Shown here: piece by piece, positions 6,633 to 49,932 of the stretch
Numbering within the stretch: position 1 is the first letter of the stretch
How the letters are laid out: each line of letters opens with the position of its first letter
Assembly (NCBI GenBank): GCA_963922205.1
Contig: CAWUHX010000147.1
Location: 434,001 to 498,000 of the forward strand
DNA from: Romanomermis culicivorax
Lineage: Eukaryota; Nematoda; Enoplea; Mermithida; Mermithidae
Reading direction: 5' to 3'
Length of the DNA: 64,000 nucleotides
Made by a program: the position numbers and the translations under genes
The notes under the pieces: model-generated
What the model saw: only the letters and a program-made list of their open reading frames with translations
What the model was told of the DNA's origin: nothing
Database searches by the model: none

Positions 6633-8194
6633 GAATTCATCAGCAAAGCTCTAAATCACGATGATCCGGATCCACCTCCTCAACTGTTCAACTACAAAGA
6701 ACAAGAAGAACTAAGGCGAACGCTAATGAATGATGATCAAATGGCCTGTTTCAATGCCCTATGCGAAGTCCTCAACAACCTCGACAATCCCAACTACAAA
6801 GGACAACATCTGTTCATCTTGCACGGAAGTGGCGGAACTGGTAAGACATTTGTCTACAATTTGCTCATCCACTGGGCGAATAGCAAAGGCATCCGAGTTA
6901 GGGCCTGCGCATCCACTGGTATTGCTACTCGCCTCAAAATGGCTAGCCAAACAGCCCACAGCACCTTCGGCATAATGAATGACGTGGGACCCGTTCAGTC
7001 ATCAACGATGGTCTTCCAAAGTGTCAACACCCAAAAGCTATGCTCAATGTCACTATTCATCATTGACCAGGTAAGCATGTTGCATAGACGCACTTTCTAG
7101 TACATCAATTGGGTTATGCAATCTATCTGATTTCGGGATGCCAAACCTCAACCCTTTGGCGGTAATGTCTTCCTCATTGAAGGTGACTTCAAGCGACTTC
7201 TGCCCGTTGTTCCCTCAGGCTCCATCCAGGACCAAATTCAGGCATCGGTGGAATCCTCTCCCATCTACAAGCTTTTTCAAAGATTCAATTTGAAGCAGAA
7301 TATGCGAGTCAATCGAGATGAAGCTTCATTTTCTGAATTTTTAGAAGAAGTTGGAAATGGTGAAAATTTCATCACGGAAACAAACCTCATGCCCATCCTG
7401 TCCGAAATGTGCATCTACTCCTGCGAGGACCTGATCGACTTTTGCTTCCAATAGGCCGAGCTGGAAAACCTGCTCAAATATTTGGACAGCTTCCGTGACT
7501 CTGCCATACTAGCGCCGATGAATTTGACCATAGATTTACTCAATCTACAAATTTTAAAAATGCCAGGTGAAGAAGGAACTTATCTTTCTATAGATTCTTT
7601 ACATTTAGGCAGTGACAAGGAATCCTTAGAAGCCCACAATCTCAGTGGTTTACAACTCAACGTCAGTGACAATGTGCTGGAAAGCATTCATCTACGGATA
7701 CCAATAGGCTTGCTGGCTCACAATCTTCAACTCAAGGTAGGTGCCATTGTAATGCTAATCAAAAACATCTCCGTCAGTGAAAGTCTCTGTAACGGCACCC
7801 GTCTCCAAATCATCTCGATGGGCGACAACATTTTGCGCTGCCGCACCCTGAAACTGAATGACCTGAGTCCCAGCATTATACTCATCCCTCGAATCAAATT
7901 CTTCATGGTACTTCTCCTAATTCTGGGAAAACTCCCTTCTCAAGAACTCAATTTCCCATTCGTCTGTCCTTTGCCATGACCATCAACAAATCTCTAGGTC
8001 AAACCCTCTCTAGAATGGGCCTCTGTCTCGATCATCAGGAAGTGTTTTCACATGGTCAACTCTATGTGGCTCCTTCTCGTGTTCACTGTCGCCAAGAAGT
8101 CAGGATCCTTTCCCATCTTGATGGCAATATTCTCATGAACATTGTCCTTAAGGAATTTCTGCTGCCTGCTCTACCTCTGAATAATAAATTTTGA
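6633..8194 (+). pseudogene. PIF1-like superfamily 1 helicase, decayed
   Basis: The open segment begins right after a TTTTCAG acceptor-like site. Domains in order: MNDDQMACFNAL lead-in; Walker A GSGGTGKT near 6830; ASTGIAT; TAHSTFG; Walker B region FIIDQVSM near 7058, where the expected catalytic Glu of the family (DE) is Gln; FGGNVFLIEGDFKRLLPVV; late PIF1 segments LNVSDN..IPIGLLAHNLQLKVGAIVMLI; and AMTINKSLGQT with YVAPSRV near 8085. It is interrupted by stops near 7100, 7130 and 7452, and by a frameshift near 7960. Helicases of this type occur in Helitron/Helentron transposons and in some large DNA viruses. No HUH/Rep endonuclease was seen upstream, so the source element is not settled. The missing Walker B Glu and the stops mean that it is inactive. 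Confidence 0.8.
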
Positions 8195-29125: not shown

Positions 29126-29158
29126 ATGAGTTCTGACAATTTAGAATTAACCCTGTAT
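29126..29158 (+). pseudogene. Penton-like minor capsid gene, first 11 codons
   Basis: An ATG at 29126 opens 11 codons that run exactly to the retroelement boundary. The last four bases, GTAT, are the target duplication. The frame resumes in register at 38240 beyond the element. Confidence 0.7.
29155..29158. repeat. 4-bp target-site duplication, left
   Basis: GTAT, repeated at 38236-38239 on the far side of the retroelement. Confidence 0.8.
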
Positions 29159-29734
29159 TGTTATGTCCTAATCGTTCTTTTAATTGACTTTACCTTTTAT
29201 TTTGGGAATACGAAAACGCATGGAATGTATATATAGTTTTTCTTTATTGTAAATATGAAAAGTGAACAAATAAATGGACTTAACGATAATCTAACTATGC
29301 GTAATCTATTAAGAAATTAAGACTGAAGAAAAATATCATCTCTAAAAATGTTTCCTCTTTTCTTTTCAGTTTCTTATCTCATTTGACCTGAGTCAAATGT
29401 TTACTCTGGTGGGTTGGTCTCGTGGTATCTCCTTATCTGTCGCAAGCACGAAGCTAGCTAATGGACTCTCGAAGGTTTCACTCTGCTTATTTTCGCTAGC
29501 ATGAAACTAGCTAGAAAATTTACTCTACATTTTATTTGCGGTTTTGGTCATCATCCTAGACCTTGCTTATCAAGTCTCACAAATTGTTTATCATGCGTTT
29601 CTCATGAATATTATTTTAAACAGGGTTTCTCAAACTCAACAAAATAAATATAAAAGAACTACAATAAAAGTACAGTAAGATTACAAGAAATACAAAATGT
29701 AACAAAATGCAGTTTTATTATTCATCCCCTGACA
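29159..29734 (-). repeat. 3' LTR
   Basis: 576 bp, TG..CA ends with the inverted hexamer-like TGTTAT/..GACA. Differs from the other LTR at C/T near 29298, near 29527 and near 29617. The pol stop codon (29745-29747) lies only about 10 bases inside; the bases just before the LTR (ACTGGCGGAT on the minus strand) are only partly purine, so the polypurine tract is weak. Confidence 0.93.
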
Positions 29735-29744
29735 ATCCGCCAGT

Positions 29745-32700
29745 CTACAAGTCAAACGTCTGCGTTTGACGTCGATTTTTGCGAAGGTTGTGATCGTGTT
29801 CAATTTGACGAGTCCGTAGGTTTTCTTCTTTATGATCGTTCGTTTCGTTATCATTCTGTTGCGAGTTGTTAAGTTCCATTGATGATTCGGGATTTTCTTC
29901 AAATGGGGGTTTGCATGGTTTGGTTCGATTTACATGTATGGTTTCATGGCCCAAGGGCTTGTTTTTGTTTTCAATTACGATATTTGGATAATTAAGGGTA
30001 ATGATTTTGTATGGGCCATCAAAAATTGGTCTCAGCTTTTTGATTTGTCCACGTTTAATAACTTCTGATTCTTTCCATATTAGTTCTCCAACTTTGTACT
30101 GTATGTTACGTTTGTTTTTGTCATATGTTTCCTTATAGGTTTCTTGTGATTTTTGGATTCTATTTTGTATGTGAGTTAATGCTTCTGTGAAATGTTTCTT
30201 TACAGTACATTGATATTCATCTATGTCAATATAATGCAGGGGCGGATAAAAGTTTATGGCTGCATCAATAGGCAGTCTGGGGTTTCTACCAAAAAGTAAT
30301 TCAAATGGAGAATATCCCGTTGTGGAATTAGTGTTTATGTTTGTAGCAAAAATGGCATATGGCAAATGTTGATCCCAGTCGCCGTGGTTCTCACCAATGT
30401 ACATTCTGATGCGAGTGATTAGAGTTTGGTTTACTCTCTCGACTTCCCCCTTGGCTATTGGGTGATACGCCGATGTGTGAATTTTCTTTGTATCAAAAAT
30501 TTTTGTGATCTCAACCATCAATTTTGAAGTAAAGTTTGATCCTTGATCCGATTGTAAAATAATGGGTGCTCCATGTCGGCACACTATTTGGGTCACAAAA
30601 AGTTTCGCAGTAATCTCCGCTGTGATGTCTTGTGTTGGGAACGCTTCTACATACTTTGTATAGTAATCTATGAATACGATTATGTAACGGTTTCCGGATT
30701 CAGTTACGGGCAATGGACCAACGCAGTCGACCCCAATACGGTCAAAAGGACCTGATACTGGTATGGGTTTTAAACTTGCTTTGATCTTTTTCAGCAAAGG
30801 TTTATTCTTTTGACATGTTTCACAAGATTCACAATATTGCTGAACATCTTTTGGTAGACTTTTCCAATAGTAATGTCTTTTGATCGATTGAATTGTTTTC
30901 TTTGTGCCAAAATGACCAGCTAAAGGATCATTGTGATACGATTCGATAATCAGTTTCTTCAGAATTTCAGGGACTACAACTTTATTTTGACCATCCACTT
31001 GCTTACATAATATTTTGTCCTTAAGGATATAAGTTTGATAAGTTTCTGATGGATTTGCTTCTAGATAGTTTATGATCGGAAAAAGATTAGGATCTTCTTT
31101 CTGTAATGTTTTAAGGTCGCTTTGTGTGTGATTTATTAAATTTACTTGACCTTTCTCTTCGGGATCAGTTTCTATGTCAAAAAATGGTGTGGCGTTAGGA
31201 TTAGGAAGCCTGGAAAGTGCATCAGCGTTAGCGTTAGCTGAACCTTTTCTTGGTTGAATATTCAGTTTAAAGTCGGCTAGAGCAAGTCCCCACCTGGCTA
31301 TACGACCAGAAGGATTTGCCTTTTCAAGCACTGATTTGACTGCTGTGTGATCAGTTTGAACAATCACTTCATGTTGAAAAAGATATGGCCTGAAAAGTTT
31401 AGTGAATTCAACAACAGCAAGGGTTTCTTGCTCTGTGATTGGGTAGTTTCTCTCCGCATCTTTTAATTTTCGACTAGCGAATGCTATAGCGTGTTCTTTC
31501 CCGTCATTTTGAATTTGGCTCAAAACGCCACTGATGCCTTCATTTGATGCATCAGTTTGTAAAATGAATGGTTTAGTAAAATCAGGATGACTTAAAATCG
31601 GAGGTTTGACTAGTTTATGCTTTAGTGTGTCAAATGCTTTATTTTGTTCTTCTCCCCAGTAGAATTTTGATCCTTTTTTGAGTAGACAGTTTAACGGATG
31701 ACAAATTTGTGCACAATTTTTGATGAATTTTCGATAATATGAAATAAGCCCTAAGAAAGATTTTAATTGTTTGATCGTTTTAGGTGGTTGTATGTTTGCG
31801 ACTGCTTCTAATTTTCTTGTGTCCGGTGTAATCCCTTCAGCTGAAATTTTATATCCAAGGTATTCAATTTCTGGATAGCTGAATTTGCATTTGTTTAATC
31901 GAAGTTTCATTCCTCCTGTTTCCAAACGGGTCAAAACTTCTTTGAGCCTTTCTAACATATGAGAATGGGTTTCTCCAAAAACGAGAATATCATCCAAATA
32001 AACGAGACATGAAGACCATTGCAAGCCAGATAATAAAATGTCCATGAGTCTCTGAAAGCTGGCTGGTGCATTACAAAGGCCAAAAGGTAGATTATTGAAT
32101 TCGTACAATCCGATTGGCGTCATGAATGCAGTTTTCTCACGGTCTTCTTCAGCAATGGGTATGCTCCAATAGGCGTTAGCCTGATCAAGCGTTGTAAAGA
32201 ATTTCATACCATTTAAGATATCTAAGCTGTCGTCGATTCTCGGAAGTGGATATACATCCTTTTTAGTGATTTGATTGAGTGCTCTAAAATCACAGCAAAA
32301 CCTATAACTTCCATCCTTCTTTGGAACAATCACTGAATTTGTGGAATACAGTGATATGCTTTTCCGAATGATGTTTCTAGATTGTAAAGCTTTCACTTCA
32401 TTTATGATTATTTGTTTCTCTTTCGGAGAAGTCCGAAAGGGGTATTTTCTAATTGGTTTAGAGTCTCCTGTATCGATATGATGTTCTAATAATAAAGTGC
32501 TACCTGTGTCTTTTCCACTATCTGCATAAAGATTTGGGAATTTTTGAAGAAGATCAACCAGTTGATCTCTATCCATTTCCGTCAATATTTTTGATATGTT
32601 TACATTATTTAAAATCCATGCTCGATTTATAGTTTTGTTACCAGTTTCCGGTCTTTTATTTGATGCTACGGTTTGCTGATCAGGTTTATAGCATTTCACT

Positions 32701-35700
32701 TCACCAATACACATGCCTGGATAAAGCTTAATTGAATATTTATTGGGATTTAGGATTTGAATTGGAATATGTCCATTGAGAATTCGGTTTACTGAAGCTG
32801 CGGCATAAACATGATGTTGTTTTAGCAGTTTCGGTTCAAAAATGATGTCGTCTGTGCATGATTGATATTGTTTTGATATTGGCACCGATAATAAATGAAT
32901 TGATTTTGGTTCAAGTTTTACAATATCATCTAAAATTATCGCACCACGATTTTGGGGTGGGTTGAATAACATACCCTCACATGGTATTTTCGCCTCTCTG
33001 AACCGAATATAAGAGTTTTCCCAATTGAATTCAACAGCTCTAAATCGGTTGAGAAAATTTGTGCCTAGAATAAGTTCAGCTGTACAATTTTTTTGAACCT
33101 GAACCTGAATAGTTTCGCTAATATCATGTGTCAATACAGTTATAAAAGCTGTGCCTAATATTTTAATAGGTTTACGGTTTGCAGCTATAGGCGTAGCTTT
33201 CGAGGGAAAAAGATGCAAATTTTTGATTCGTTTAGCAACATCAGCATCAAGCAACGAATAAACTGCTCCCGAGTCAATTAATGTATTCGCCCACAGCATC
33301 CCATCAATTTTGAAATTGGCATGTGGGGTACGTTTAGGTGGTTCAAACAAAACGTTAATTGACTCATTTTGGCTTTCTAAGTCAACATTGTTTCTTTGTT
33401 TATTGAATTTTACGATCCATTTGTGTTTACTCTTTTTTAATTTTTGTTGTTTCTTTTTATTTTTTGATTGTATTTGTGCAAGTTGTAAAAGTGCATCGGA
33501 AAAAGTTGGTTGACTCTCTTCAATTGATGGAATGATTTGTTTATTCCGTTTTCGTTTATAGTATATGAGAAAAAGATATGCTACGTAAGCAATAACAATT
33601 ATGATTCCGATTATGATTAGGGTATTCAATAGGAGTTGAATATGCGCTTTTAAAAAACCATTGAATGCATGTGATATCACTTCAGCTTCTTTATCAACCA
33701 CATGTTCAAAAGCATTTCCGAGACCTTTAGCAGTATTGCTGATACCATCCGTGGTTCCAGACAAAATTTCAAATATTCTTTTGGGTTGTAAAGATAAGCT
33801 AGACGTATAATTGACAACATTGTTGAGTACATTCTCAAGTTTCTGCGTTTTAAAAATATAGTGTCTCAGAAAAACGTAATTTATAGGAGCTTGTGCAATT
33901 TGATCGTGAAATACTGCTGGTGTATTGAACTGAAAAAGTTTATGATCTCCTTTCCATATCAGTTGTAAAGACATTGAGCTTACATGAACTGGTCCAGAAT
34001 TAGTGATCCATGTTTTATTTTGCTTGAATATACCGATCGTGTGATGATTACAATCAACCACAGGGCTTGATTGTATGAGATCCTGCCCTCCTGGAGTAAC
34101 AAAAAATACAGTTTTCTCCACTTGAACGGGTAAATATTTGTAGCAAGTCTCTCCTATACGATAGTCATAGTAGAGCTTATTGACCTTAATTTGTTTACAC
34201 GGCCAAACGGTTAATGCATCTCCAGTGAATTCGGCAGTTATATCGTTTCTCTGCAAGAATGCTCGAATACCCAATGTAGGATCAAAAAGAAGTAATTGCC
34301 AAATTAGGTCAAGGTATCTCTGTGCATAATAGCAAAGTTCAAGCCAAACATGCTTAAAATTTTCAATTTCGTTTTGCGTTATCCGATATTCTAAATAATT
34401 CAGTTTAGAGTTCACTGGATCAGGATTGCGTTGCTTGATTTCTGAATGAGTACGGTTTACACTTTTATAGTTCTCCTTGATCTGTAAGATGACACCCTGT
34501 TCTGTGGATAAAAGATGAGAATGATCTGGACATTCACGATAACTTGATGTGAGGACGAATGTGCATTGTATCTCATCAATAACAACATGATTTCCGCTTA
34601 TTTTTGCCTGGTAAACATTTTTGTACACGAATGGACAAAAATTCGAAAAGTTTCTTGAGTCCCAAACAATAATGCTCTCTTCATTAGCACAATGGCCCGA
34701 GGTAGCAAGGCAACCTCCTAAATCACCTAGGTCGCTGCTAATAAGTTTACCATCCCAAGTGGCTACTTGACCCTGTTCAATGACAAAGTTTTCTACTGTT
34801 GTGCATATATCACTACAACACCACTTATAGTTTACATGTAAAGTATTGTTTGTGGTCCACAAACCATCATGTTTCTTAATTAAACGTGTATCTTTGTAGA
34901 CTTTGGTTCTCATAGCCTGATTGCATTGCTTAATAGACACATGACTTACTGTAACTTTATCTGCCACGATTCCTTTTGAACCAAAGAAACCCATGTTTGT
35001 GCAGATGATAGGATTTCTCAGACTACATTTGAATGCACTTGCATATGCTGGCTCATTTCTTGGAACAAAAATTGAAATGTTCATGAGATAGGGCTTTATT
35101 AATTGTTTGGGCGGTTCACAAATTATATTTTTGGGTAAATAAACGGCATGTCCGCTTCTCGAACCACCACAAATATGATATGAGTTGATAAATACAGGAT
35201 AATATATAAGAAAAATCAAAAAACAAAGCACAAAAGATTGTATATTAAAATCATAATTTTTCGGATAAGCTTCTCTTTGGCTTTGATTGGATTCAAACTG
35301 GTGATTAGGTTGATTTTTCTGAAAAGAGTTTTGTTTGTGAATAAAGTTTGAAAAACTGAATAGTTGAAGTTTACCGCAAATCAGGTTGCTCAAAGTTTGC
35401 TTGACATTCCTCGCATGTTTCTCCAACGCATCTTTAACCGATTTGTCTTCAATAGACTCGATATCCATTTCCATGCTGTTGAGCATTACGGTCAAATTAT
35501 CGACGGCAATTTGATTCGGTGATAAAATGGTTTGGGGTTTCTCATCGATTTTCGTTTGTTGATCAGATTCTCTTGACAAATTTCCAGACGACTTTTTGTT
35601 TCTCGTTTGAACGGATTTGCTGTACGCTCCATGCTTTGGACAATAGCAGCATGTGCATAGCAATTCTGAACAAAGACTTTCTGATGAATGATCATTCTGA

Positions 35701-36281
35701 ATAGTTTGCAGAAAATTAGAATTATTGAAGTATGATCCGTGAACCTGATTAGCTGAAGAAAGATTGGGATCATCTTGATCCAATGAATCAAAAACATAAA
35801 AATCTTGATTTTCATCTTGCTGGACAGCATTATTAAACCGTCTATTTTGATTATTAGCATATTTGTTAAGCTGATTACTGTTTCTTTGAGAATTATAATT
35901 GTGATTTTGAGCATAAGAATTACGATTTTGAGTATTAAAGTTTCGATTTTGATAGTTGAAGTTTTGATTCTGAGACTGATTACCTCTCGATTGATAATTA
36001 TTGTAATTTTGAATGTTACCTGATCTTGGAGGCATGCGGCATTGTGAAGTAGGATGTCCGGTTCTCCCACAGTTTCGACAAGGCGAACGACATTGATTGG
36101 TGCCATGATTCGATCGACCGCATATTTCGCAATTCGGTCTCTGGCTGCCGTTATTGGTTCTCTGATTGTTGTTGTTGTTTCTATAATAACATTGTTCCGT
36201 CGAATGCATATTCGTTTTGCAGTTTGCACAATATCGACGTTTCGATTTCGAAATTTGTTTCTGAATATTGGATAATTTTTC
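29745..36281 (-). CDS. pol: Fused nucleocapsid, envelope-like glycoprotein and Pol polyprotein
   Basis: Open from just after the gag stop; first Met at 36209 gives 2,154 aa (numbering from that Met). A CCHC knuckle straddles that Met (36230-36189), so the Met is unlikely to be the true start; two more follow at residues 27-40 and 44-57. Residues 58-130 are Asn/Gln-rich. 325-344 is hydrophobic, about 345-855 a Cys-rich ectodomain, 858-882 a transmembrane segment, then YYKRKRNK. Protease: TLIDSGAVYS (D979) and ILGTNF. RT: YLDD at 1404-1407. RNase H: TDAS (D1553) and QTDHTA. Integrase: H1759, H1766, C1796, C1799; D1828, D1888 and E1924 with 35 residues between the last two. GPY-like FDGPYKII near 2064. 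All catalytic residues are present. Expression presumably needs passage of the TAA, or a spliced RNA. Confidence 0.93.
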   Translation of the reverse strand, partial: EKLSNIQKQISKSKRRYCANCKTNMHSTEQCYYRNNNNNQRTNNGSQRPNCEICGRSNHGTNQCRSPCRNCGRTGHPTSQCRMPPRSGNIQNYNNYQSRGNQSQNQNFNYQNRNFNTQNRNSYAQNHNYNSQRNSNQLNKYANNQNRRFNNAVQQDENQDFYVFDSLDQDDPNLSSANQVHGSYFNNSNFLQTIQNDHSSESLCSELLCTCCYCPKHGAYSKSVQTRNKKSSGNLSRESDQQTKIDEKPQTILSPNQIAVDNLTVMLNSMEMDIESIEDKSVKDALEKHARNVKQTLSNLICGKLQLFSFSNFIHKQNSFQKNQPNHQFESNQSQREAYPKNYDFNIQSFVLCFLIFLIYYPVFINSYHICGGSRSGHAVYLPKNIICEPPKQLIKPYLMNISIFVPRNEPAYASAFKCSLRNPIICTNMGFFGSKGIVADKVTVSHVSIKQCNQAMRTKVYKDTRLIKKHDGLWTTNNTLHVNYKWCCSDICTTVENFVIEQGQVATWDGKLISSDLGDLGGCLATSGHCANEESIIVWDSRNFSNFCPFVYKNVYQAKISGNHVVIDEIQCTFVLTSSYRECPDHSHLLSTEQGVILQIKENYKSVNRTHSEIKQRNPDPVNSKLNYLEYRITQNEIENFKHVWLELCYYAQRYLDLIWQLLLFDPTLGIRAFLQRNDITAEFTGDALTVWPCKQIKVNKLYYDYRIGETCYKYLPVQVEKTVFFVTPGGQDLIQSSPVVDCNHHTIGIFKQNKTWITNSGPVHVSSMSLQLIWKGDHKLFQFNTPAVFHDQIAQAPINYVFLRHYIFKTQKLENVLNNVVNYTSSLSLQPKRIFEILSGTTDGISNTAKGLGNAFEHVVDKEAEVISHAFNGFLKAHIQLLLNTLIIIGIIIVIAYVAYLFLIYYKRKRNKQIIPSIEESQPTFSDALLQLAQIQSKNKKKQQKLKKSKHKWIVKFNKQRNNVDLESQNESINVLFEPPKRTPHANFKIDGMLWANTLIDSGAVYSLLDADVAKRIKNLHLFPSKATPIAANRKPIKILGTAFITVLTHDISETIQVQVQKNCTAELILGTNFLNRFRAVEFNWENSYIRFREAKIPCEGMLFNPPQNRGAIILDDIVKLEPKSIHLLSVPISKQYQSCTDDIIFEPKLLKQHHVYAAASVNRILNGHIPIQILNPNKYSIKLYPGMCIGEVKCYKPDQQTVASNKRPETGNKTINRAWILNNVNISKILTEMDRDQLVDLLQKFPNLYADSGKDTGSTLLLEHHIDTGDSKPIRKYPFRTSPKEKQIIINEVKALQSRNIIRKSISLYSTNSVIVPKKDGSYRFCCDFRALNQITKKDVYPLPRIDDSLDILNGMKFFTTLDQANAYWSIPIAEEDREKTAFMTPIGLYEFNNLPFGLCNAPASFQRLMDILLSGLQWSSCLVYLDDILVFGETHSHMLERLKEVLTRLETGGMKLRLNKCKFSYPEIEYLGYKISAEGITPDTRKLEAVANIQPPKTIKQLKSFLGLISYYRKFIKNCAQICHPLNCLLKKGSKFYWGEEQNKAFDTLKHKLVKPPILSHPDFTKPFILQTDASNEGISGVLSQIQNDGKEHAIAFASRKLKDAERNYPITEQETLAVVEFTKLFRPYLFQHEVIVQTDHTAVKSVLEKANPSGRIARWGLALADFKLNIQPRKGSANANADALSRLPNPNATPFFDIETDPEEKGQVNLINHTQSDLKTLQKEDPNLFPIINYLEANPSETYQTYILKDKILCKQVDGQNKVVVPEILKKLIIESYHNDPLAGHFGTKKTIQSIKRHYYWKSLPKDVQQYCESCETCQKNKPLLKKIKASLKPIPVSGPFDRIGVDCVGPLPVTESGNRYIIVFIDYYTKYVEAFPTQDITAEITAKLFVTQIVCRHGAPIILQSDQGSNFTSKLMVEITKIFDTKKIHTSAYHPIAKGEVERVNQTLITRIRMYIGENHGDWDQHLPYAIFATNINTNSTTGYSPFELLFGRNPRLPIDAAINFYPPLHYIDIDEYQCTVKKHFTEALTHIQNRIQKSQETYKETYDKNKRNIQYKVGELIWKESEVIKRGQIKKLRPIFDGPYKIITLNYPNIVIENKNKPLGHETIHVNRTKPCKPPFEENPESSMELNNSQQNDNETNDHKEENLRTRQIEHDHNLRKNRRQTQTFDL
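33540..35237 (-). other. Envelope-like membrane glycoprotein domain within the Pol frame
   Basis: Residues 325-890 of the long ORF. Hydrophobic signal or anchor, then HICGGSRSG; about 20 Cys including a CC pair; six or so N-glycosylation sequons (residues 377, 454, 520, 585, 731 and 800); a stem of alternating small and hydrophobic residues (near 810-850) and one strong transmembrane segment with a basic tail. This layout is that of a viral type I fusion glycoprotein. The stem-plus-anchor pattern reminds me of class III glycoproteins, but I cannot show homology by eye. It is followed directly by a Lys-rich linker and the protease. Confidence 0.75.
35319..35326 (-). promoter_or_regulatory. Candidate 3' splice site before the envelope-like domain
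   Basis: On the minus strand, CTTTTCAG lies about 25 codons before the hydrophobic segment. Together with the leader donor at 37533-37540 it could give a subgenomic RNA. No in-frame ATG lies between it and the hydrophobic segment, which weakens the idea. Confidence 0.25.
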
Positions 36282-37310
36282 TTAAAGATCTCGAATTTTA
36301 TTGGTCTCTAAATGAAGAACAGCATTGGATATAGTTGCATTATGGTTATCAATGTTATCACGTGCAAGCTGTGACTCTGCGTAAGCTGCAGCTTTGGTAG
36401 CTTCACTTAAGTCTGTAAATTCACGAAACCTAATTGCTTCTCTGACTGTAGGTTGTAAACCACGCAAGAAAATGGGTTTAATTATTGCATGTCTAGCGTC
36501 ACTGTTTAAATCAGGAAAAGCTGAAGCAGCAATTTTCTTAAGATCATCAACGTATTCAAGTGCAGTTTCTTTGAATCTTTGTTTTCTATCGTAAATATGC
36601 TGCTGGTAGAGATCACTGTCTCTTCCAATGGGGTATAAATGAAGCATCTCATTCTTGTAGCCATCATACGTTTGAGGCAGTGCATTACTGGATTTAAGTT
36701 CTCTGAAAGATGCTAAAGCTGCACCTGAAAAATTAGCTTCCAAGTATGCTAGCCTAAAATTGTCCTGGGCGGGAGTAATTCCTTGAAGAGTCATAAAATG
36801 CTCGAATTGCACAAACCATTCTTCGAGATTTTGACCCAAGGCACCCGAAAACATGGGTGGTGGCCTCAAAGCAATAAGTGGGTTGATTCTCAAGGTTGCT
36901 CTTCGAATTTCCTCTGATGCTTCCTCTAAGTTAATATTGTCAAATCTGCCTGAAAGATCATCAAGTCTGTCCTTTACAGGTGTCATTAGTTGCTGTGTTT
37001 CTTGAAGTGTATCAGTTATGGAAGTTAGTTTTTGTTGCATTGGATAAACAATTGTGTGAAGCGTACGTTTAAGCACTTGTTCTAATGCGTCAGAATCAAT
37101 CGACATTTTATTTTTAAGCTTACTTGATGATGCACGTGTTTGACGAGGGGTAGAAAATGATTTTTGAGCGTTTTCAACTATATCGTTATATTGATCAAAA
37201 ACTGACTTAAATGATTCCTCTGATTCTTGTGCTAAAAAAGTATCCTCAGTGTCCGAGCCTGACGATTGATCCAGTGAAAAAAAACACGAAAAACAAAGAA
37301 AAAAAAACAA
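36282..37310 (-). CDS. gag: Gag, capsid part
   Basis: Open frame of 342 codons ending in TAA (36284-36282). I prefer the start at 37106 (MSIDSDALEQ, 274 aa): the upstream part is the translation of a T-rich leader (MFFFLCFSCFF), although a DQSSGSDTEDTFLAQESEES stretch before it is acidic and could be real. The core FSGALGQNLEEWFVQFEHFM..AYLEANFSGAALASF and the later DLYQQHIYDRKQRFKETALEYVDDLKKIA pattern fit the Ty3/Gypsy retrotransposon Gag (capsid) fold. No zinc knuckle precedes the stop: all three lie beyond it in the same frame. Gag and Pol are thus in one frame separated by a single TAA. Confidence 0.85.
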   Translation of the reverse strand: MFFFLCFSCFFSLDQSSGSDTEDTFLAQESEESFKSVFDQYNDIVENAQKSFSTPRQTRASSSKLKNKMSIDSDALEQVLKRTLHTIVYPMQQKLTSITDTLQETQQLMTPVKDRLDDLSGRFDNINLEEASEEIRRATLRINPLIALRPPPMFSGALGQNLEEWFVQFEHFMTLQGITPAQDNFRLAYLEANFSGAALASFRELKSSNALPQTYDGYKNEMLHLYPIGRDSDLYQQHIYDRKQRFKETALEYVDDLKKIAASAFPDLNSDARHAIIKPIFLRGLQPTVREAIRFREFTDLSEATKAAAYAESQLARDNIDNHNATISNAVLHLETNKIRDL

Positions 37311-37532
37311 ACAAGAAAAATAACAAAAATACCTCCGAACGTGTGATTGGAGTTCTATGCTGTTGGAATGCCCTGTGACCTTTACTGCTTAAGGTATACA
37401 CGCGCTTTTCCTTCTGTGCTTTAGAACAAAATACTAAGCAGTAAAAATAAATGATTTCTTGAAAAAAAAAACGAAGAAATCGGACAAAGTTTGTCTGTGC
37501 TAGTTCAAATAATCGGTGTGTTCAAGGGGAAA

Positions 37533-37540
37533 ACTTACCT
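37533..37540 (-). promoter_or_regulatory. Candidate 5' splice site in the leader
   Basis: AGGTAAGT on the minus strand, between the primer-binding site and gag: a near-consensus donor. It could serve a leader intron (a long polypyrimidine run follows at about 37318-37290) or a subgenomic RNA. Confidence 0.35.
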
Positions 37541-37640
37541 TACTTCTGCCTTGACTGTCCTTCGCCGAACTGCTGTGATCAAACGAGAGAAAAAAAAACG
37601 CAAACGCAACGTGTGGAGCAAAGCGTAAATGCAAAATTTG

Positions 37641-37655
37641 TGCCAAGCCTCGCCA
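37641..37655 (-). promoter_or_regulatory. Candidate tRNA primer-binding site
   Basis: TGGCGAGGCTTGGCA starts four bases inside the 5' LTR on the minus strand. The TGG start is as expected for the complement of a tRNA 3' CCA end. I cannot name the tRNA. Confidence 0.55.
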
Positions 37656-37659
37656 AGTT

Positions 37660-38235
37660 TGTTATGTCCTAATCGTTCTTTTAATTGACTTTACCTTTTA
37701 TTTTGGGAATACGAAAACGCATGGAATGTATATATAGTTTTTCTTTATTGTAAATATGAAAAGTGAACAAATAAATGGACTTAACGATAATCTAACTACG
37801 CGTAATCTATTAAGAAATTAAGACTGAAGAAAAATATCATCTCTAAAAATGTTTCCTCTTTTCTTTTCAGTTTCTTATCTCATTTGACCTGAGTCAAATG
37901 TTTACTCTGGTGGGTTGGTCTCGTGGTATCTCCTTATCTGTCGCAAGCACGAAGCTAGCTAATGGACTCTCGAAGGTTTCACTCTGCTTATTTTCGCTAG
38001 CATGAAACTAGCTAGAAAATTTACTCTATATTTTATTTGCGGTTTTGGTCATCATCCTAGACCTTGCTTATCAAGTCTCACAAATTGTTTATCATGCGTT
38101 TCTCATGAATATTATTTCAAACAGGGTTTCTCAAACTCAACAAAATAAATATAAAAGAACTACAATAAAAGTACAGTAAGATTACAAGAAATACAAAATG
38201 TAACAAAATGCAGTTTTATTATTCATCCCCTGACA
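37660..38235 (-). repeat. 5' LTR
   Basis: 576 bp, nearly identical to 29159-29734. A TATATATA run lies toward its downstream end on the minus strand (near 37736-37728), and AATAAAA lies near its upstream end. Confidence 0.93.
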
Positions 38236-38239
38236 GTAT
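38236..38239. repeat. 4-bp target-site duplication, right
   Basis: GTAT, matching 29155-29158. Confidence 0.8.
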
Positions 38240-39816: not shown

Positions 39817-42800
39817 TCATTTCAAAGATTCAAATTTTACTGTTTTTTTGTTATTGTAAGTTAACCTAAAACCTCTTACCTTATTTACTTCTACAATTAT
39901 GTTACCTAGTTCATTACAAATTCTATAAGCATAATTTTTTGGGCCTCCAGACACAAACTCTCCTATATATGCACTATGGCCATACCCCTTGAGCTCCTTT
40001 GTCATTTCTCCTGAATAACAATCTATGGGTGGACTACATGTGTGAGATTTATCATGTTTATTTGTTAAGTATAAAACAGAGTCTGTGTCCATATACAAAA
40101 CACGTTCTTGCAATTTTTCAATGTAAGTGTATAATTTTAGGGGAGCCTGGGAAGCTAGGATATCCTATCTGCATTACTGCATTTGTGTTGGTGAGTGCTT
40201 CTAAAAATTCATCATTTTATGTGTAACTAAGGCAGGCCATAGAGTCCCCATAGAACCTTATATCAGGCACAGTTATTTTATCTTTAAAAACCAGAGTGAA
40301 ACATTTTTCTGGTGCTGTTAAATATTCTGTGTGACTTAAAGTATTCCTTTGCCCAAATTTACCCCAAAAACTATTCAACATTAATTTAGCTAAAGTTCTC
40401 ATTCCACTATATTTCGCTATTTGATTTCTTACCAACCTGATACCCTCATGTTGTTGGTAATTTTCGATATATGTATCTTTTTCTTGTTCCATCATGTTGC
40501 TCCATGGCCACCCATCTGCCTGTTGCTCAAGCCATAAATAATGTGTTTATATATTTGATGTCCCTTCATAATGCCAGACTTCTTGTATTTCCAAAACCTT
40601 TAAAAAAAAGCTCAAAAACGTGAATTTTTTGCTCATTTTATAGCCCAACTCTATGGCTTTGTATAACTCCAATGTCACCCATGCTCCAGTGAGTGAACGC
40701 TTCTCATTTGTAAGTGTGCAATCGTCCTCAGAATTGTCTTTGCACAATCTGCAGAGTGGGAAAAGCAGCTTCCCTACTGATCGATATGGAAGCACTGGAT
40801 GAAAGAGCCTTCGTGGCTGCACAACTGTGCATTTTATGATTCCAGTGTATGGTTGATTGTCTAATTTGGCTAAATTTTCTGCGATAATTTGTGGATGCTT
40901 GATGGGGAACAAACCCATGTTGCACACCCAAGGGTACAAACTACAAATGTCCACATAGTTGATGCATTCACCACTTTGACATTTATGGTAAAGTTTAATT
41001 GCATTTGTTTGCCCACCATAAAATACTGAAAAAGAAAATAATCCCTGTATGTTATATATCTCCTGCTCCTAAAGGTGCATGAATTTGAATGGAATCGAAA
41101 AAGTTTTCCATCAAGTTGTCTTTTAATTGACATACCCATTTTTCCACTACTGTGAATTTTTGACTTTCCAAATAAATACATTGTTCAATAGTAGGTTGAT
41201 ATGTTTTCTCTGCAGTATTTCGATAGTCTAAAGCTGGTTCTTTCCCATTTTCCATACAGTTGGGACAACCGTGCCACCTTAATTGGATTTTGTAAGCACC
41301 CATAAATTAATTTCTGGGAAATGTTACCAGCATCCATAAAATTTGTGGACTGTTTGGCCACACAATCCGTCCACTTTATATGGCCCAATTTTGCCCTCGC
41401 CTGCATTTAATTTGTGGCGAATCTGAATGTTATCTTTGCAGGCAATCCATTTAAGTGCAATTTTTGACTGATTTTCCTGACATCAATAACTTCCATGTGG
41501 AATAATGCCAATAGTGTTTTCTTTCAGGAAATTACGCCTGTATACCTAATTACATGCTGACACAATCATCAAACTGGTCAAAAAGGGGTCAACATTGGTT
41601 TCATGAAGAAATATTTCACCAAACGTCAAGGAACCATTCAGCAGGATATCGACATCAGATTAACAGTAAGAAATTATTTCTTTCTGTAAATCAAACAGTT
41701 TCCCACAAGCTAATTGTTTTGAGTGCCTAAAAATGCAGATTAGATGTAGGAAACATAAAAAATTTAAATGTACCACTTTAGAAAATCTTTCCTGATGTCT
41801 TCTTTCATTGCATTGGGGTTGTAAAATTCGATGTCTGGTAAAGGTCTAACATATACTCAATTTTCTTTCATGTTGAACAGATGGGGAGAGAACTTTTTTT
41901 TTTCTATCAAATCAAAAGTCTTTGGGAAAGCTGCCAAAGGCATGGGCAAAAAATTCAAAGTGTCAATTATTCTTACATTTTCTGCTTCTAACATCATCAG
42001 TTCTAACCCCTTTGATATTATATTGGGTGGCAAATTTCACTGAGAATGTAGATATTCAAGTATAAATTGTGAGTCAAAACCCTTAGTATTGTGAGCCAAA
42101 ACTGTGAAGCCTCGATGCTCATCGGAAAAAAGATGTCCAAATTCATTAAGGCAATTTTCTCCAATGAAAATATGACGATTCCCCTTACTGCATGACTCTC
42201 ACATTCCTATACCTTTGGGTATACACTTGTCACATACCCTATATGCCACACAACAGTTTGGTACATGTTTTCTTACTGGTCCCCACTGATTAGTGGTCAT
42301 TCCCACTTCCTGGCAAGTTTCCAAGTCGAAAAAAATAAACTTAGGTTGATGTGGTTTCTTCTCATCTTGTAATGTCCCAAAATAATAAGTTAATTTTAAA
42401 ACAGGATTTCACAGCATGAAAGGAAGCTTACTTCGATATAACAATCATAACTTTCTCTATCAACCATGGCATGACATGTATGACAGAAAAATTGTTCAGT
42501 TTCATCAATTGGCCACAGTTTTTGCATCATTTCAACTTTTCACCAAGTGACTAAACACATTTGGACTTGTTCCCCAGGTTATTTGTCCTATTTTGTGGTT
42601 GGTCAGACACATTTTACGGGAGAACAATCTGATAAATCAGATTCATTAAAAGGTATCAGGTATGCACTAATTCCTCATGCTCACCTATTGCATTCAGCAC
42701 ACTTATGCCAATCTTCTTTCATGCAATGCTCTTTTGAATTGCAACCACTGCATTTCCCTCAACTGCATTTATGATCAAATTGATGCCAAAACCCATTGTT

Positions 42801-43545
42801 GTATATTTCATAAAAACTTTTTTTTCCCATGAAAGCATATGGCATGCGTGTGATGAGGTCAAAATGATATAAGTGTAGGACTTTTGACACCTGAGGCCCC
42901 TTATAAATCAATTGTCCAAAATTTTCTTTTGAAAACACCTTCATCTGATAGTTTGGTGTCAAATGAGCCTGAATCTTTTCAAGCTCATCCAAACCACAAT
43001 TTCCAGAGTGATTTCCGAGGCCTGCATCATTCATCAGCTTTTTGGCCAGTCTACATTGAATTTGACAACCCTGGCATTTGGAATTCCATCTTTATGAGCT
43101 GTTCATTTTTGCTCTAGCAACTACCACAGTATGGGCCAGGCAGAGCTGATCATTTTTTATCTGAAAAGGCAAAAATGAAAAATGTAAAAACTATTTCTCA
43201 AACATATTCCACATGTTATACTTGTACAAAACAGCCTCCGTGGCCACTATGTCTCTCAAACCACTGATCCCAATTTATGATTCTGGAACATGCATTTTTC
43301 CATGCAGTGTTGGTTCCAGCACCTTGAGGTGAATCTATAATAACGGATTTTAATTGCATTTGTTCACTAATCTCAAATTCCTGCTCAGACTGCTGTACTG
43401 CTTCTATTTTGTTCAGAATCTGCACTCCATTCATATGCTTTGGTGACACAAAAGGTAGCGAAATTCTATGAGATAGTTTAGAATGACTGATGTCTGCACC
43501 AACTCTATACCTTGAACCATTGTCTGTTGACAACATATTTCTCAA
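39817..43545 (-). pseudogene. Polinton/Maverick protein-primed DNA polymerase B, near full-length but broken
   Basis: Segments from N to C: 43545-43216 the upstream domain (STDNGSRYRVGADI, IEAVQQSEQEF); 43034-42759 KIQAHLTPNYQMKVFS; about 42390-42240 exonuclease I FIFFDLETCQE with HVPNCCVAYRVCDKC; about 41990-41850 IIDTLNFLPMPLAAFPKTF; about 41665-41560 SDVDILLNGSLTFGEIF; 41406-41185; 40954-40547 motif A DICSLYPW; 40495-40217 motif B LAKLMLNSFWGKFGQR; 40113-39817 motif C YMDTDSV (catalytic Asp pair) and GGPKNYAY. This is the complete order of the family, and all polymerase motifs keep their key residues. Frames change between segments and stops are frequent, so it is a relic. ORFs at 43635-43847 and 43867-44061 upstream may be its N-terminal extension. 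Confidence 0.85.
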
Positions 43546-46680: not shown

Positions 46681-47079
46681 ATGACTTCTTTAGCCAAATG
46701 GCTGAAATGACTAAAATTTTTTTAGCCAAAGCCTAAAATTTTTATTTTGCTCAAACGTGATACACTGGTTGTTTTTTAAAAATTAAACAGGTTATGTAAG
46801 GTGTTTTTAAGAGTTATGTTATCACTTCAGGAACAAAACAATTATTTTTGTTCGAAATTTCGAAATGCTGATATAAATATCTGATAACAAGCTAACTTTT
46901 TATAGACTTGTTAGTTAGCTATTACTGTAATAATTTCTTCTAGATGCCTACTAAAATTAGATTCTGTAAATGATTAGGTAAATTCAGTTTATTTAGTTGT
47001 AATTTTTTGCAGATTTTTCGTAATTGTTTTGACTTTGATTAATATCCTTTCTGCATATTCATTTTTTTCATTTTTTAGC

Positions 47080-49932
47080 ATGCCTAAGTTAATTAAAAAT
47101 TTTTTCAAACTTGTCGATTCAGCTGATTTACCAGAATTGTCTCTAAACAAACAACGTAATTCCGATCCTGATGATATAATGATCAATGATGATGTCGACG
47201 CTTCAAAAGATGATTGCGCCAAAAGATCGTACAAAAGTCATTGGACTTCAGAATTCAATTGGTTAGTAAAACTTAGTGATACTACAGCGAAGTGTTCAGT
47301 ATGTGAATGCAACAAGTCCAATTCAAAGAATGATTGGGCGACAGAAAAGTACTTGATTGATTGGAAAAAAGATATTTTCCAAAAGCATGCCAGCAGTGTC
47401 AAACATAAACAAGATTTGTTGATTCTGCCATTGCAAAGGGGGTTTCAAAAAGCTGTGATGAGGGCAAACAAAAAGGCTTCAGAACAAACCGTTGGTCTTA
47501 TGATAAATGTGTTGGCATCTCTACAGAAGGAAATGAGTATAAATGAAGTGCACTTTATTCCTTTGTTGTGTGCTATTCACATTGACCATGCCTTGAGTAG
47601 CTGCAAAACGGATGGAAATATGTCTGGAGGAGGAGAAAAAAGTTTAGAGCTATCGAGCAAGCATTGATTTTTGTATTCGACCTACAAAACCATTTTGGCT
47701 TTGAACCAGTCCGTAAAAAACGAACAATTCAAACTTTTTAAACGATCCTCGGCTGTTTGTGTTCACGTTGATGAGTCAGCCGATGTCAGTAGTTCTAGGT
47801 TACTATTGATTTACCTGAATGTGTGCAATGTTGAGTGTCTGATGGATGGAGAAAAATTTGGAACAGTGGTTGAAATAGAAAAGTGTGATGGGTCCTCAAT
47901 TGCCGAAGCGATCAACAAATGGCTTACAATGGTTGCCATTGATAAAAAATTTTTCATGTTCACCTCTGATGGAGCAGCTGTTATGACAGGCAAATATAGT
48001 GGAGTTGCTCAAAAACTGTGCGAAAATTACAATTATGCTCGCCTCATCAACTATCACTGCATTTGTCATTGTGAAAGTCTGGTGATGAAAGATTCGTATA
48101 AAGTATATTATAATTATGTCATTCGAATGCCTATTATAATCTATAACATTAATTCGTTAAGTATCATTCCATTTATATATTTACATCTTTTTCAATGTGT
48201 TTTTCAGGAAAACCCACATCTTGTTAAATTGAAAAGTGTGCTTCGCGACGTAATTACTTTTTTGGTGACACACAATAACATGGTAGGGTTGAAAAAAGTT
48301 GCATTGATTTTGGAGGAAGTGGCATATGTACTGAGGCCGATATATGAAATTCAGTAAACCAATACTTAGTAAATTTTTGCAGTATAAAATGAAAATAAAA
48401 TATTTCAGTTGGTTGTCGAGAATTAAAGTGGTGAGTGATTTTGTGAAATCAATGCCTGTGATTTTGACATTTCTGAAAGAAAAGTTGGATGATGATGAAA
48501 TGGCAAAAGTGAACATAGAAAAATTATGTATGTAATAAACAAGCATTTTTAAAATTAATTTCTCAATTATTATCACTATTCACCCGCCTCCCAAATGTTC
48601 ACAATCAAGTGATTTTGCATCACTTAGATGATATTAAGGCCGATTCAGATTCTGTCTTTGAAACTTCAAAAGAAAAATCTACGCCCTTTTGACGCCTTGG
48701 TATGTAAGATTTTGTAGGTACAGGCATGTGCATGATACATGAATCCTTTCATATTATACACAGTACAGTTCCATTCATTCAGTTGCACATTCAATCCATG
48801 ATGGTGAAACTGGAAAAAATTTTTTTGGACGATAACGTACAACTGTGTGGCGGAAGTTTTAATTCATTGAAATCTGAAGTTGAAGATGGTTCAATTCTAT
48901 TATCCGGTGGTGGATTGGTCCACACTGTTTTGTCATCGTGCCAAACGACTATGAGAGGTATAAATTCAGCTTTATTTAACTTAGTAGCTGAGAAGTCGAG
49001 AAATCAATCAATTCATCTTACCTTTAATTTTCAGATTTCACCAAAAGTGTTGTTTAAAATACCAAAAAACGCATGTGGTGCAATGATGACATCATTTCCA
49101 AATTTTCGAGATTTCAATTGGGCGAAAATTCAAAAAAACTAGGAAAAGCTGATTTTGCTTCATATGGAGAGGACGAAATAACTTCATCAGTAGATTTTTA
49201 CAGCGAAACAAACGAATTGGATGCAACAAAATTCAAGCACGGTGGAAGAGTTACAAAGTATGTATAGAAATTGTTTCTTGATTTCCTCTATTTTTCTGAA
49301 AACCTTGAATACTAATTCCATGATTAATTAGTATATATATTTAGTTTTGAAATATTTACTTCACTTTCCAGTACTCGTACTTGAGAGCAAACGTTGGTGC
49401 CGGCGATTTTGATTGGAAAGCTCCATTGGGATTATGTGTTCAATTGGCCGAAGCTTTTCCTAACTTGAGACTCTTTGCCACCATTTGTGAGCATTTAGAT
49501 TATGTATATAATTACACAGACATGACAAATTATTATTCACCTGTTGCTATTATATTCAAGTGTTGTGTTTTAATGCACAAAATGCCACAGTCGAAAGAGG
49601 TTTTTCCACCGTTAATCGCCTGAAAACTAAAAGCAGAAATCGATTGCACTGTCAGATGCTAGATAAGCTGCTACATCTACGTTTATTGGCGGCAAGTTAC
49701 AATAAATTTGACTTCAGCAAATCATTGGAATGTTATCTGAAAGGAACGATTTATAGCATCGGGAAGGCAGCCAAAAAAACCAAGCGTTGTGGCGACGGTA
49801 TGCTACTCACTTATCTTGTGGAATTGTTCAACTAATAATAACTTTGAGCAAATTTCAGATGTCGATGATTGTGAAGAGGATGAAGATGACAATGAAAAAG
49901 ATTTGGACGAAATGTGTGCATTGCTGGATTAA
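47080..49932 (+). CDS. hAT transposase, multi-exon, one in-frame stop
   Basis: I chose ATG 47080 (MPKLIKNFF). The N-terminal zinc finger has CSVC and FQKHASSVKH. HVDESADVSSSRLLL and FMFTSDGAAVMTG follow as the RNase H-like core, then CICHCESL. Near the C-terminus ATVERGFSTVNRLKTKSRNR is the hAT dimerisation motif. An in-frame TGA at 47665-47667 interrupts the run. Intron 48103-48207 (105 bp, GT..TTTTTCAG) keeps frame. Donors GTAAAC at 48354 and GTATGTA at about 48529, and acceptors at 48382 or 48408, suggest more small introns; the middle exons up to about 49380 are unresolved. A last intron (GTATGC near 49799 to TTTCAG near 49857) leads to an acidic tail ending at TAA 49932. It resembles the ZNF862-like TTF-finger hAT group. 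Confidence 0.8.

What the first reader, a model, noticed from the sequence alone, without database searches (positions are those of the whole stretch)
33540..36281. Envelope-like glycoprotein embedded in-frame between nucleocapsid and protease of a Gypsy-like element
The sequence shows one uninterrupted 2,154-codon frame running from CCHC knuckles through a hydrophobic signal, a Cys-rich glycosylated ectodomain and a transmembrane anchor into the DSG protease and YLDD RT. In errantiviruses and vertebrate retroviruses the envelope gene follows pol and is made from its own RNA. Here it would be translated as part of the polyprotein, so the glycoprotein would have to be inserted in the membrane with nucleocapsid on one side and Pol on the other and be cut free. 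I know of no described element with this order. All catalytic motifs look intact and the LTRs are almost identical, so it is not simply a decayed rearrangement.
Basis: partly seen in the sequence, partly recalled or inferred. Interest (0 to 1): 0.92.

Follow-up and report, generated by a model that had tools for sequence, protein, structure and literature searches.

The report
Envelope gene inside a retrotransposon polyprotein
A mobile retrovirus-like element, present in many copies in an unidentified genome, carries a captured virus-entry glycoprotein in the middle of its polyprotein, between the capsid part and the enzymes, rather than as a gene of its own, which suggests an unfamiliar way for such an element to make an envelope.

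Summary
Confirmed and extended. The window holds a 9.08-kb Ty3/Gypsy-like element (minus strand, 29159-38235; 576-bp TG..CA LTRs, 3 differences; 4-bp TSD). One frame (2,178 codons stop to stop) runs CCHC nucleocapsid - linker - signal - Cys-rich ectodomain - TM - protease - RT - RNase H - integrase. The ectodomain matches the Monjiviricetes (chuvirus/bornavirus-type) fusion glycoprotein profile PF24664 (E=5e-20; 16 of 16 aligned copies). It is no local rearrangement: 81 env copies were scored in the same 359-Mb genome (a lower bound), about 46-98% identical, 34 of 81 in unbroken frames of 2,000 codons or more. Of 20 protease loci fetched, the 12 that also hold capsid all have env sequence between. 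In the one informative pair, env and linker are constrained about as strongly as protease. Nothing follows integrase.

Most likely mechanism (inferred, 0.6): a membrane-threaded Gag-Env-Pol polyprotein, nucleocapsid and Pol cytosolic, ectodomain luminal, freed by signal peptidase and the element's protease, as in flavivirus or alphavirus structural polyproteins. A spliced Env-Pol mRNA is not excluded. This copy has an in-frame TAA between capsid and nucleocapsid that two siblings lack.

Ten answered literature searches showed no paper describing this order. Host unidentified. New variant of envelope capture by LTR elements.

The parts
37660..38235 (-). 5' LTR, 576 bp, TG..CA
29159..29734 (-). 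3' LTR, 576 bp; 3 differences from the 5' LTR
38236..38239 (.). target site duplication ATAC (5' side)
   Evidence: read from sequence
29155..29158 (.). target site duplication ATAC (3' side)
   Evidence: read from sequence
37640..37655 (-). candidate primer binding site (TGGCGAGG..., 4 nt after the LTR); tRNA not identified
   Evidence: interpretation recalled
36282..37106 (-). gag MA/CA-like ORF from first ATG to TAA (36282-36284); Ty3_capsid (below cut-off) and Retrotrans_gag (at cut-off) matches
36039..36230 (-). nucleocapsid: three CCHC knuckles
   Evidence: read from sequence
35250..36038 (-). linker (N/Q-rich, then Cys/Ser-containing); relatives L009-L019 show purifying selection here
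35172..35249 (-). hydrophobic signal/anchor just before the ectodomain; in other copies also hydrophobic by eye, with different letters
33660..35171 (-). Cys-rich ectodomain of fusion glycoprotein; PF24664 match at 33996-34709
33552..33659 (-). transmembrane anchor followed by basic residues
33315..33551 (-). basic tail joining Env to protease, no stop
33045..33314 (-). aspartic protease (DSG; PF13975 E=4e-4, below its curated cut-off)
31845..32327 (-). reverse transcriptase core (YLDD; PF00078 E=5e-36)
31269..31658 (-). RNase H
30459..30974 (-). integrase: H2C2 finger and rve core
29745..29747 (-). stop codon of the long frame, 10 bp before the 3' LTR: no room for a downstream env

Best explanation
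It is a Ty3/Gypsy-like endogenous retroelement whose lineage captured a negative-strand RNA virus (Monjiviricetes) type fusion glycoprotein and placed it in frame between nucleocapsid and protease. SHOWN: the gene order, the single frame, many copies, purifying selection in relatives, two hydrophobic segments placed for a type I ectodomain, no env after pol in this copy. INFERRED: ribosomes make a Gag-NC-Env-PR-RT-RNaseH-IN polyprotein (NC-Env-Pol at most in this copy). When the internal signal emerges, the nascent chain is taken to the ER; capsid and NC stay cytosolic, the ectodomain goes into the lumen, and after the TM anchor Pol is again cytosolic. Signal peptidase cuts at the ectodomain start and the element's own protease cuts in the basic tail, so Env, Gag and Pol are made together at one membrane and Env is packed into budding particles.
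For: Order NC-linker-Env-PR in 8 of 8 first env loci (L006 and L008 with frame breaks). PR follows env in 12 of 12 further env loci, and 8 of 12 are open from the start of the piece to the DTG motif. 68 of 81 scored env copies have no stop in the match; 55, 34 and 14 of 81 lie without a stop in open frames of at least 1,400, 2,000 and 3,090 codons. Where an env row has a PR row downstream (40 pairs; 63 of the 142 PR rows were typed in), 23 of 40 have the same open-frame length, taken as one frame. dN/dS for the pair L009-L019: env 0.09, tail-PR 0.09, linker 0.12, NC 0.03. No methionine column is shared by all 8 compared copies from NC to PR, so no conserved Env start codon was seen (linker alignment uncertain). 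Two hydrophobic segments; a hydrophobic signal is seen by eye in the 16 aligned copies. In the 3,100-codon family the polyprotein frame runs through 237 codons where another frame is the conserved one; it shows no amino-acid constraint there (pN/pS 0.95) yet has 0 stops in 5 of 5 copies, against 2.4 expected with that ORF's own codon usage and 6.5 with env's: it seems to be kept open, as polyprotein translation requires.
Against: No RNA or protein data. In this copy a TAA separates capsid from NC. Acceptor-like sequences lie 471-585 nt before env in 4 of the 8 copies (chance level not computed). The open-frame test gives P(none) of only 0.05 with the overlapping ORF's own codon usage (4e-4 with env's); its five copies are 97-98% alike and come from rows with long open frames, and two copies with split matches (L013, L017) were left out. 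Selection is uneven: in the closest trio L001-L003 env dN/dS is 0.35-0.47 against 0.09-0.22 for tail-PR, on few changes, and L004-L005 NC gives 0.80 over 47 codons. Cleavage sites are not shown. Env and PR trees share their main groups by eye (distance correlation 0.94, 0 of 2000 permutations as high), but the exact PR topology is rejected on env data (AU p about 5e-5; IQ-TREE warns of too few replicates), so recombination or tree error is present. The structure model is poor (pLDDT 34), so no fold comparison was made.
Confidence: 0.6

Rival explanations
1. Env-Pol is translated from a spliced mRNA: an upstream donor is joined to an acceptor in the NC-linker region, giving a linker-Env-Pol protein, while Gag comes from unspliced RNA. 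Env and Pol are still one protein, but nucleocapsid is not on its N-terminal side.
For: Acceptor-like sequences 471-585 nt before env in L001, L004, L009, L010, and at other places in L007 (chance level not computed). Insect errantiviruses take the start of Env from an upstream exon or from within gag, depending on subclade (PMC12992720, passage seen).
Against: No acceptor-like site in the scanned stretch in L005, L014, L019. Linker under purifying selection in the main frame in L009-L019 (0.12) and no stop between NC and Env in most pieces with intact frame. In the 3,100-codon family the polyprotein frame stays open through a stretch where its own residues are not conserved.
Confidence: 0.22
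2. Env is an alternative intron: splicing removes it to give a Gag-Pol mRNA, and unspliced RNA gives Env.
For: It would solve how Pol reaches the cytosol and the ratio of Gag-Pol to Env. Donor-like motifs lie upstream of env in L004 (two), L014, L012 and L018.
Against: No GT shared by 7 or more of 8 copies between 36293 and 34865, i.e. upstream of or at the start of env (the linker alignment is uncertain, so family-specific donors are not excluded). Intact copies keep an open in-frame tail from Env into PR, which an intron need not.
Confidence: 0.08
3. The glycoprotein segment is a relic carried along without function, or a rearrangement in a dying copy.
For: This copy has a stop between capsid and NC; 13 of 81 env matches have stops inside; env dN/dS in close pairs reaches 0.53.
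Against: Purifying selection on env equal to PR in L009-L019; conserved cysteines over 16 copies down to 42% identity; at least 81 copies.
Confidence: 0.03
4. The in-frame Env is not cleaved free but works as a membrane anchor that tethers Gag and Pol, with fusion activity lost.
For: Two hydrophobic segments place NC and Pol on the same side; no R-x-K/R-R motif in the NC-to-tail piece (class III fusogens do not need one, recalled).
Against: A full ectodomain with invariant cysteines is kept, more than a tether needs.
Confidence: 0.07

Closest known systems
Insect errantiviruses (gypsy, ZAM etc.; Metaviridae)
   Same: Ty3/Gypsy-type pol with a captured viral fusion protein
   Different: their env is F-type (baculovirus-like) and a third ORF (PMC12992720, PMC5408687, passages seen); here env lies between NC and PR in the same frame and is of Monjiviricetes type
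Anakin (mosquito BEL-Pao with chuvirus glycoprotein)
   Same: glycoprotein from the same virus group, captured by an LTR retroelement (PMC7642597, abstract and passages seen)
   Different: BEL-Pao, not Gypsy; that paper places the envelope-like proteins of Roo, Tas and Cer-7 downstream of the polyprotein, and I did not see its figure of Anakin's own order
Jingchuvirales glycoprotein EVEs next to Gypsy fragments in insects
   Same: same kind of glycoprotein, seen near Gypsy fragments in Hymenoptera and Coleoptera
   Different: PMC10084718 (abstract and passages seen) states no clear evidence of capture by Gypsy; here it is inside LTRs and in frame
Drosophila roo (BEL group, one ORF with env)
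   Same: an env-bearing element described as having one ORF (PMC5408687, passage seen)
   Different: BEL group; its env is placed downstream of the polyprotein (PMC7642597, passage seen)
C. elegans Cer1
   Same: LTR retrotransposon without a stop between gag and pol (PMC10309623, passages seen)
   Different: no envelope in the passages seen; its extra protein CERV is nuclear and made from spliced mRNA
Flavivirus and alphavirus structural polyproteins (recalled)
   Same: capsid in cytosol, internal signal, luminal glycoprotein, TM anchor, further products from one polyprotein
   Different: not retroelements; a working analogy only, not kinship

Membership tests
Ty3/Gypsy (Metaviridae) | pol order PR-RT-RNaseH-IN, not PR-IN-RT | tested here: met
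Ty3/Gypsy (Metaviridae) | RT-RH and IN closest to Ty3 among solved structures | tested here: met
   RT-RH best 4ol8 E=4e-72, 247 bits, best non-Ty3 entry 153 bits; IN best 7q5b 2e-34. No RT tree with named Gypsy clades was possible
Ty3/Gypsy (Metaviridae) | LTRs TG..CA with short TSD | tested here: met
Ty3/Gypsy (Metaviridae) | gag with capsid domain and CCHC | tested here: met
   Retrotrans_gag 24.1 bits, at its cut-off; Ty3_capsid 24.2 bits, below its cut-off of 29.1; knuckles read
Errantivirus | env as third ORF downstream of pol | tested here: not met
   long-frame stop 10 bp before the 3' LTR; env lies before PR
Errantivirus | env of F type | tested here: not met
   PF24664 and BDV_G are the only viral glycoprotein families matched
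Monjiviricetes fusion glycoprotein | PF24664 above curated cut-off | tested here: met
   71.6 bits against 27 for the window copy; 16 of 16 aligned copies match at E 0.01 or better
Monjiviricetes fusion glycoprotein | class III fusion fold | tested here: inconclusive
   single-sequence model pLDDT 34; no meaningful PDB sequence match
Monjiviricetes fusion glycoprotein | signal, ectodomain with conserved cysteines, one TM anchor | tested here: met
   hydropathy for the window copy, by eye in the alignment
Anakin-type BEL-Pao | BEL-Pao pol | tested here: inconclusive
   Ty3 is the best match for RT-RH and IN, which speaks against it, but no BEL-Pao reference was at hand
Membrane-threaded polyprotein (works like flavi/alphavirus) | glycoprotein released by signal peptidase and a cytosolic protease | not testable with these tools
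   needs translation and N-terminal sequencing

The most novel reading that the evidence does not exclude
A lineage of enveloped Gypsy retroviruses with the order gag-env-pol in a single polyprotein threaded through the ER membrane, derived from one ancestral capture of a negative-strand RNA virus fusogen, active recently in this genome; one subfamily has added a second retropepsin-like domain right behind the Env anchor and an overlapping accessory gene between nucleocapsid and Env.
Probability: 0.5. Interest if true: 0.88.

Novelty: new variant of a known kind. Interest (0 to 1): 0.8.

Why it matters
Envelope capture is how retrotransposons become infectious retroviruses. In the cases whose order I saw stated (roo, Tas and Cer-7; errantiviruses as a third ORF; the ORF3 of rotifer elements) the envelope comes after pol. 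A conserved, multicopy lineage with env inside the polyprotein would mean that an integral-membrane glycoprotein and the replication enzymes can be made as one chain, which makes topology, stoichiometry and protease timing testable in a retroelement. It would also be a Gypsy capture of a Jingchuvirales-like glycoprotein, of which PMC10084718 reports no clear evidence. Part of the many chuvirus-like glycoprotein EVEs counted in insect genomes (227 in 19 ant genomes, PMC6540820) might be env parts of such elements (inference).

Tried and rejected
Chance frame or assembly artefact: rejected (copies on many contigs). Env-less sibling as the parent form: looked for among PR loci; 20 fetched, 19 of them because one search had no env row for them (L040 had one). 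18 of 20 hold env sequence, L023 and L031 only its C-terminal part and L039 with a deletion into PR; L034 and L037 hold none within 4.4 kb and no capsid/NC either. Not fetched: PR row C34:834 (contig edge) and the many lower PR rows of the 3,100-codon family without an env row. Env as intron and Env with its own ATG: not supported. Relatives elsewhere: none confirmed in viral contigs or genome contigs. PDB sequence search with env: nothing meaningful. Structure: single-sequence model unusable, so no fold search was run; copies from the genome search are not on the structure tool's list of permitted rows and were not sent. Overlapping ORF 35492-36307 in the window was not pursued. Host: not identified; the COX1 family search did not complete, nor were gag and RT searches of the genome. 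Papers: ten searches answered; two returned no paper; none of the listings or passages seen describes a gag-env-pol order; only open-licence PMC papers are held.

Full report
WHAT IS THERE. The element lies on the minus strand at 29159-38235 (9,077 bp). LTRs of 576 bp begin TG, end CA, differ at 3 positions, and are flanked by ATAC on both sides. From the 5' LTR inward: a candidate primer binding site; a gag ORF with a Retrotrans_gag match at its cut-off and a Ty3_capsid match below it; a TAA at 36282-36284; then a frame open for 2,178 codons with three CCHC knuckles, an N/Q-rich linker, a hydrophobic stretch, a Cys-rich ectodomain, a second hydrophobic stretch with basic residues after it, aspartic protease, RT with YLDD, RNase H, H2C2 finger and integrase core. 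The frame ends 10 bp before the 3' LTR, so no env can follow integrase.

WHAT THE GLYCOPROTEIN IS. Pfam PF24664 (Monjiviricetes fusion glycoprotein) matches at E=4.6e-20, 71.6 bits against a cut-off of 27, and BDV_G at 9.5e-6 (24.7 bits, below its cut-off of 27). Over 16 aligned copies, 16 match PF24664 and 14 match BDV_G at E 0.01 or better. Alignment A1 shows invariant cysteines through the ectodomain; by eye, a hydrophobic signal whose letters change between copies, and a TM anchor. There is no meaningful match in the PDB by sequence, and a single-sequence structure model failed, so a class III fold rests on the Pfam family, not on a structure.

HOW MANY. The window is part of a 359-Mb assembly of 595 contigs, without a name. 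A 530-residue env query scored 81 copies (lower bound: 4,010 candidates, 81 scored), in tiers near 98%, 60-66%, 52-57% and 46-49% identity. 68 of 81 have no stop within the match; 55, 34 and 14 of 81 lie without a stop in open frames of at least 1,400, 2,000 and 3,090 codons. A protease query scored 142 loci (of 3,271 candidates). Loci L001-L020 were chosen from the env list. In 8 of 8 first ones NC, linker, Env and PR follow in that order, with frame breaks in L006 and L008. In 12 of 12 further ones PR follows env; CCHC knuckles are seen upstream in 7 (two of these with a stop inside a knuckle); the other 5 belong to the 3,100-codon family whose NC lies outside the piece, and for one of them it was found in the neighbouring stretch; 8 of 12 are open from the start of the piece to the DTG motif. 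Twenty PR loci were fetched, 19 because one search had no env row for them: 18 of 20 hold env sequence, and the 12 of 20 that hold capsid all have env sequence between capsid and PR. So the order is the usual one among the loci examined, and no copy with gag and PR but without env was seen.

SELECTION. In the pair L009-L019 (dS about 0.8) dN/dS is 0.09 for signal-ectodomain-TM, 0.09 for tail-PR, 0.12 for the linker and 0.03 for NC (52 codons). Close pairs give env values of 0.03-0.53 on few changes; in the trio L001-L003 env (0.35-0.47) looks looser than tail-PR (0.09-0.22). Most wider pairs are saturated at synonymous sites, and L004-L005 NC gives 0.80 over 47 codons. Env and PR distances correlate at r=0.94 over 26 copies and the main groups agree by eye, as expected if env has travelled with pol since before the subfamilies split. 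Against a perfect match, the PR topology is rejected on env data; the trees differ, among other places, in L010 and in the order among near-identical copies.

HOW IT LIKELY WORKS. The two hydrophobic segments are the only strong ones found from gag to integrase in this copy, which puts the ectodomain in the lumen and both NC and Pol in the cytosol. No conserved Env start codon and no upstream GT shared by 7 or more of 8 copies was seen. No stop separates Env from PR in intact copies. The simplest reading is one polyprotein threaded through the ER membrane and cut by signal peptidase and by its own protease. The cleavages, the membrane insertion and the use of full-length RNA are inferred. The main rival is a spliced linker-Env-Pol mRNA: acceptor-like sequences lie 471-585 nt before env in L001, L004, L009 and L010, elsewhere in L007, and not in L005, L014, L019 (chance level not computed).

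THE 3,100-CODON FAMILY. The commonest tier (about 47% identical in env) reaches open frames of 3,090 codons or more in 14 of 81 copies. In the copy at C112 the frame holds NC fingers (L021; the part before them was not Pfam-tested), Env (PF24664 E=1.7e-14), protease, RT, RNase H and integrase. Between the Env anchor and the ordinary protease lies a further stretch with a DTG motif and a later ILG motif (Pfam only 0.005), which may be a second retropepsin. Between NC and Env lies an ATG-started ORF of 237 codons in another frame (L012 646-1359): over 4 copies that frame has pN/pS 0.27 (568-1359) while the polyprotein frame has 0.95, against 0.20 before it and 0.31 in env. Over 655-1404, 22 of 38 variable sites fall on codon position 2 of the polyprotein frame. 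The polyprotein frame nevertheless has no stop in 5 of 5 copies, with 2.4 expected by the ORF's own codon usage (P none 0.05) and 6.5 by env usage (P 4e-4). These copies are 97-98% alike and were picked from rows with long open frames; two with split matches were left out. This is indirect evidence that ribosomes must pass from NC to Env.

COMPARISON. By pol order, Ty3-like RT and integrase, LTR ends and TSD it is Ty3/Gypsy-like. It is not an errantivirus by env position or env type. The nearest functional precedents are Anakin (BEL-Pao with a chuvirus glycoprotein, PMC7642597), roo (env-bearing, one ORF, PMC5408687) and errantiviruses (PMC12992720). PMC10084718 reports Gypsy fragments near such glycoproteins but no clear Gypsy capture. 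Of all papers only search listings, abstracts or passages were seen. The searches that bear most on order listed none that, from what I saw, describes env between gag and pol; Repbase, GenBank annotation and subscription journals were not searchable, so a precedent may exist.

LIMITS. Host unknown; no env-less outgroup element could be placed because the genome search did not complete; no RNA or protein evidence.

Noticed in passing
L012:646-1359 (G000:C112), also L011, L018, L041, L042: Overlapping ORF of 237 codons in a different frame between NC and Env of the 3,100-codon family, under purifying selection (pN/pS 0.27 over 568-1359, 4 copies) where the polyprotein frame is not (0.95); no Pfam match. 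L041 has one extra stop in it.
   Followed up: partly
L012:3182-3691 and 4247-4591: Two DTG-bearing protease-like stretches in tandem behind Env in the 3,100-codon family, joined by a Ser/Arg-rich linker; a possible second retropepsin.
   Followed up: partly
window 36282-36284: In-frame TAA between capsid and nucleocapsid in the window copy; the two 98% siblings show none in the 130 codons seen upstream of NC.
   Followed up: yes
window 39820-43091: DNA polymerase B fragment (PF03175 E=3e-12 at 40550-41068) beside the insertion; neighbouring ORFs without Pfam match look related by eye, perhaps a Maverick/Polinton-like element (name recalled).
   Followed up: no
window 6582-8194: PIF1-like helicase fragments (PF05970, PF21530), perhaps Helitron-like (recalled).
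   Followed up: no
window 46978-48357: Two adjoining 229-codon ORFs without Pfam match; by eye transposase-like (recalled).
   Followed up: no
PMC6540820 (ant genomes): 227 Mono-Chu glycoprotein EVEs in 19 ant genomes, 89.7% of Mono-Chu hits; some may be env parts of elements like this one (inference).
   Followed up: no
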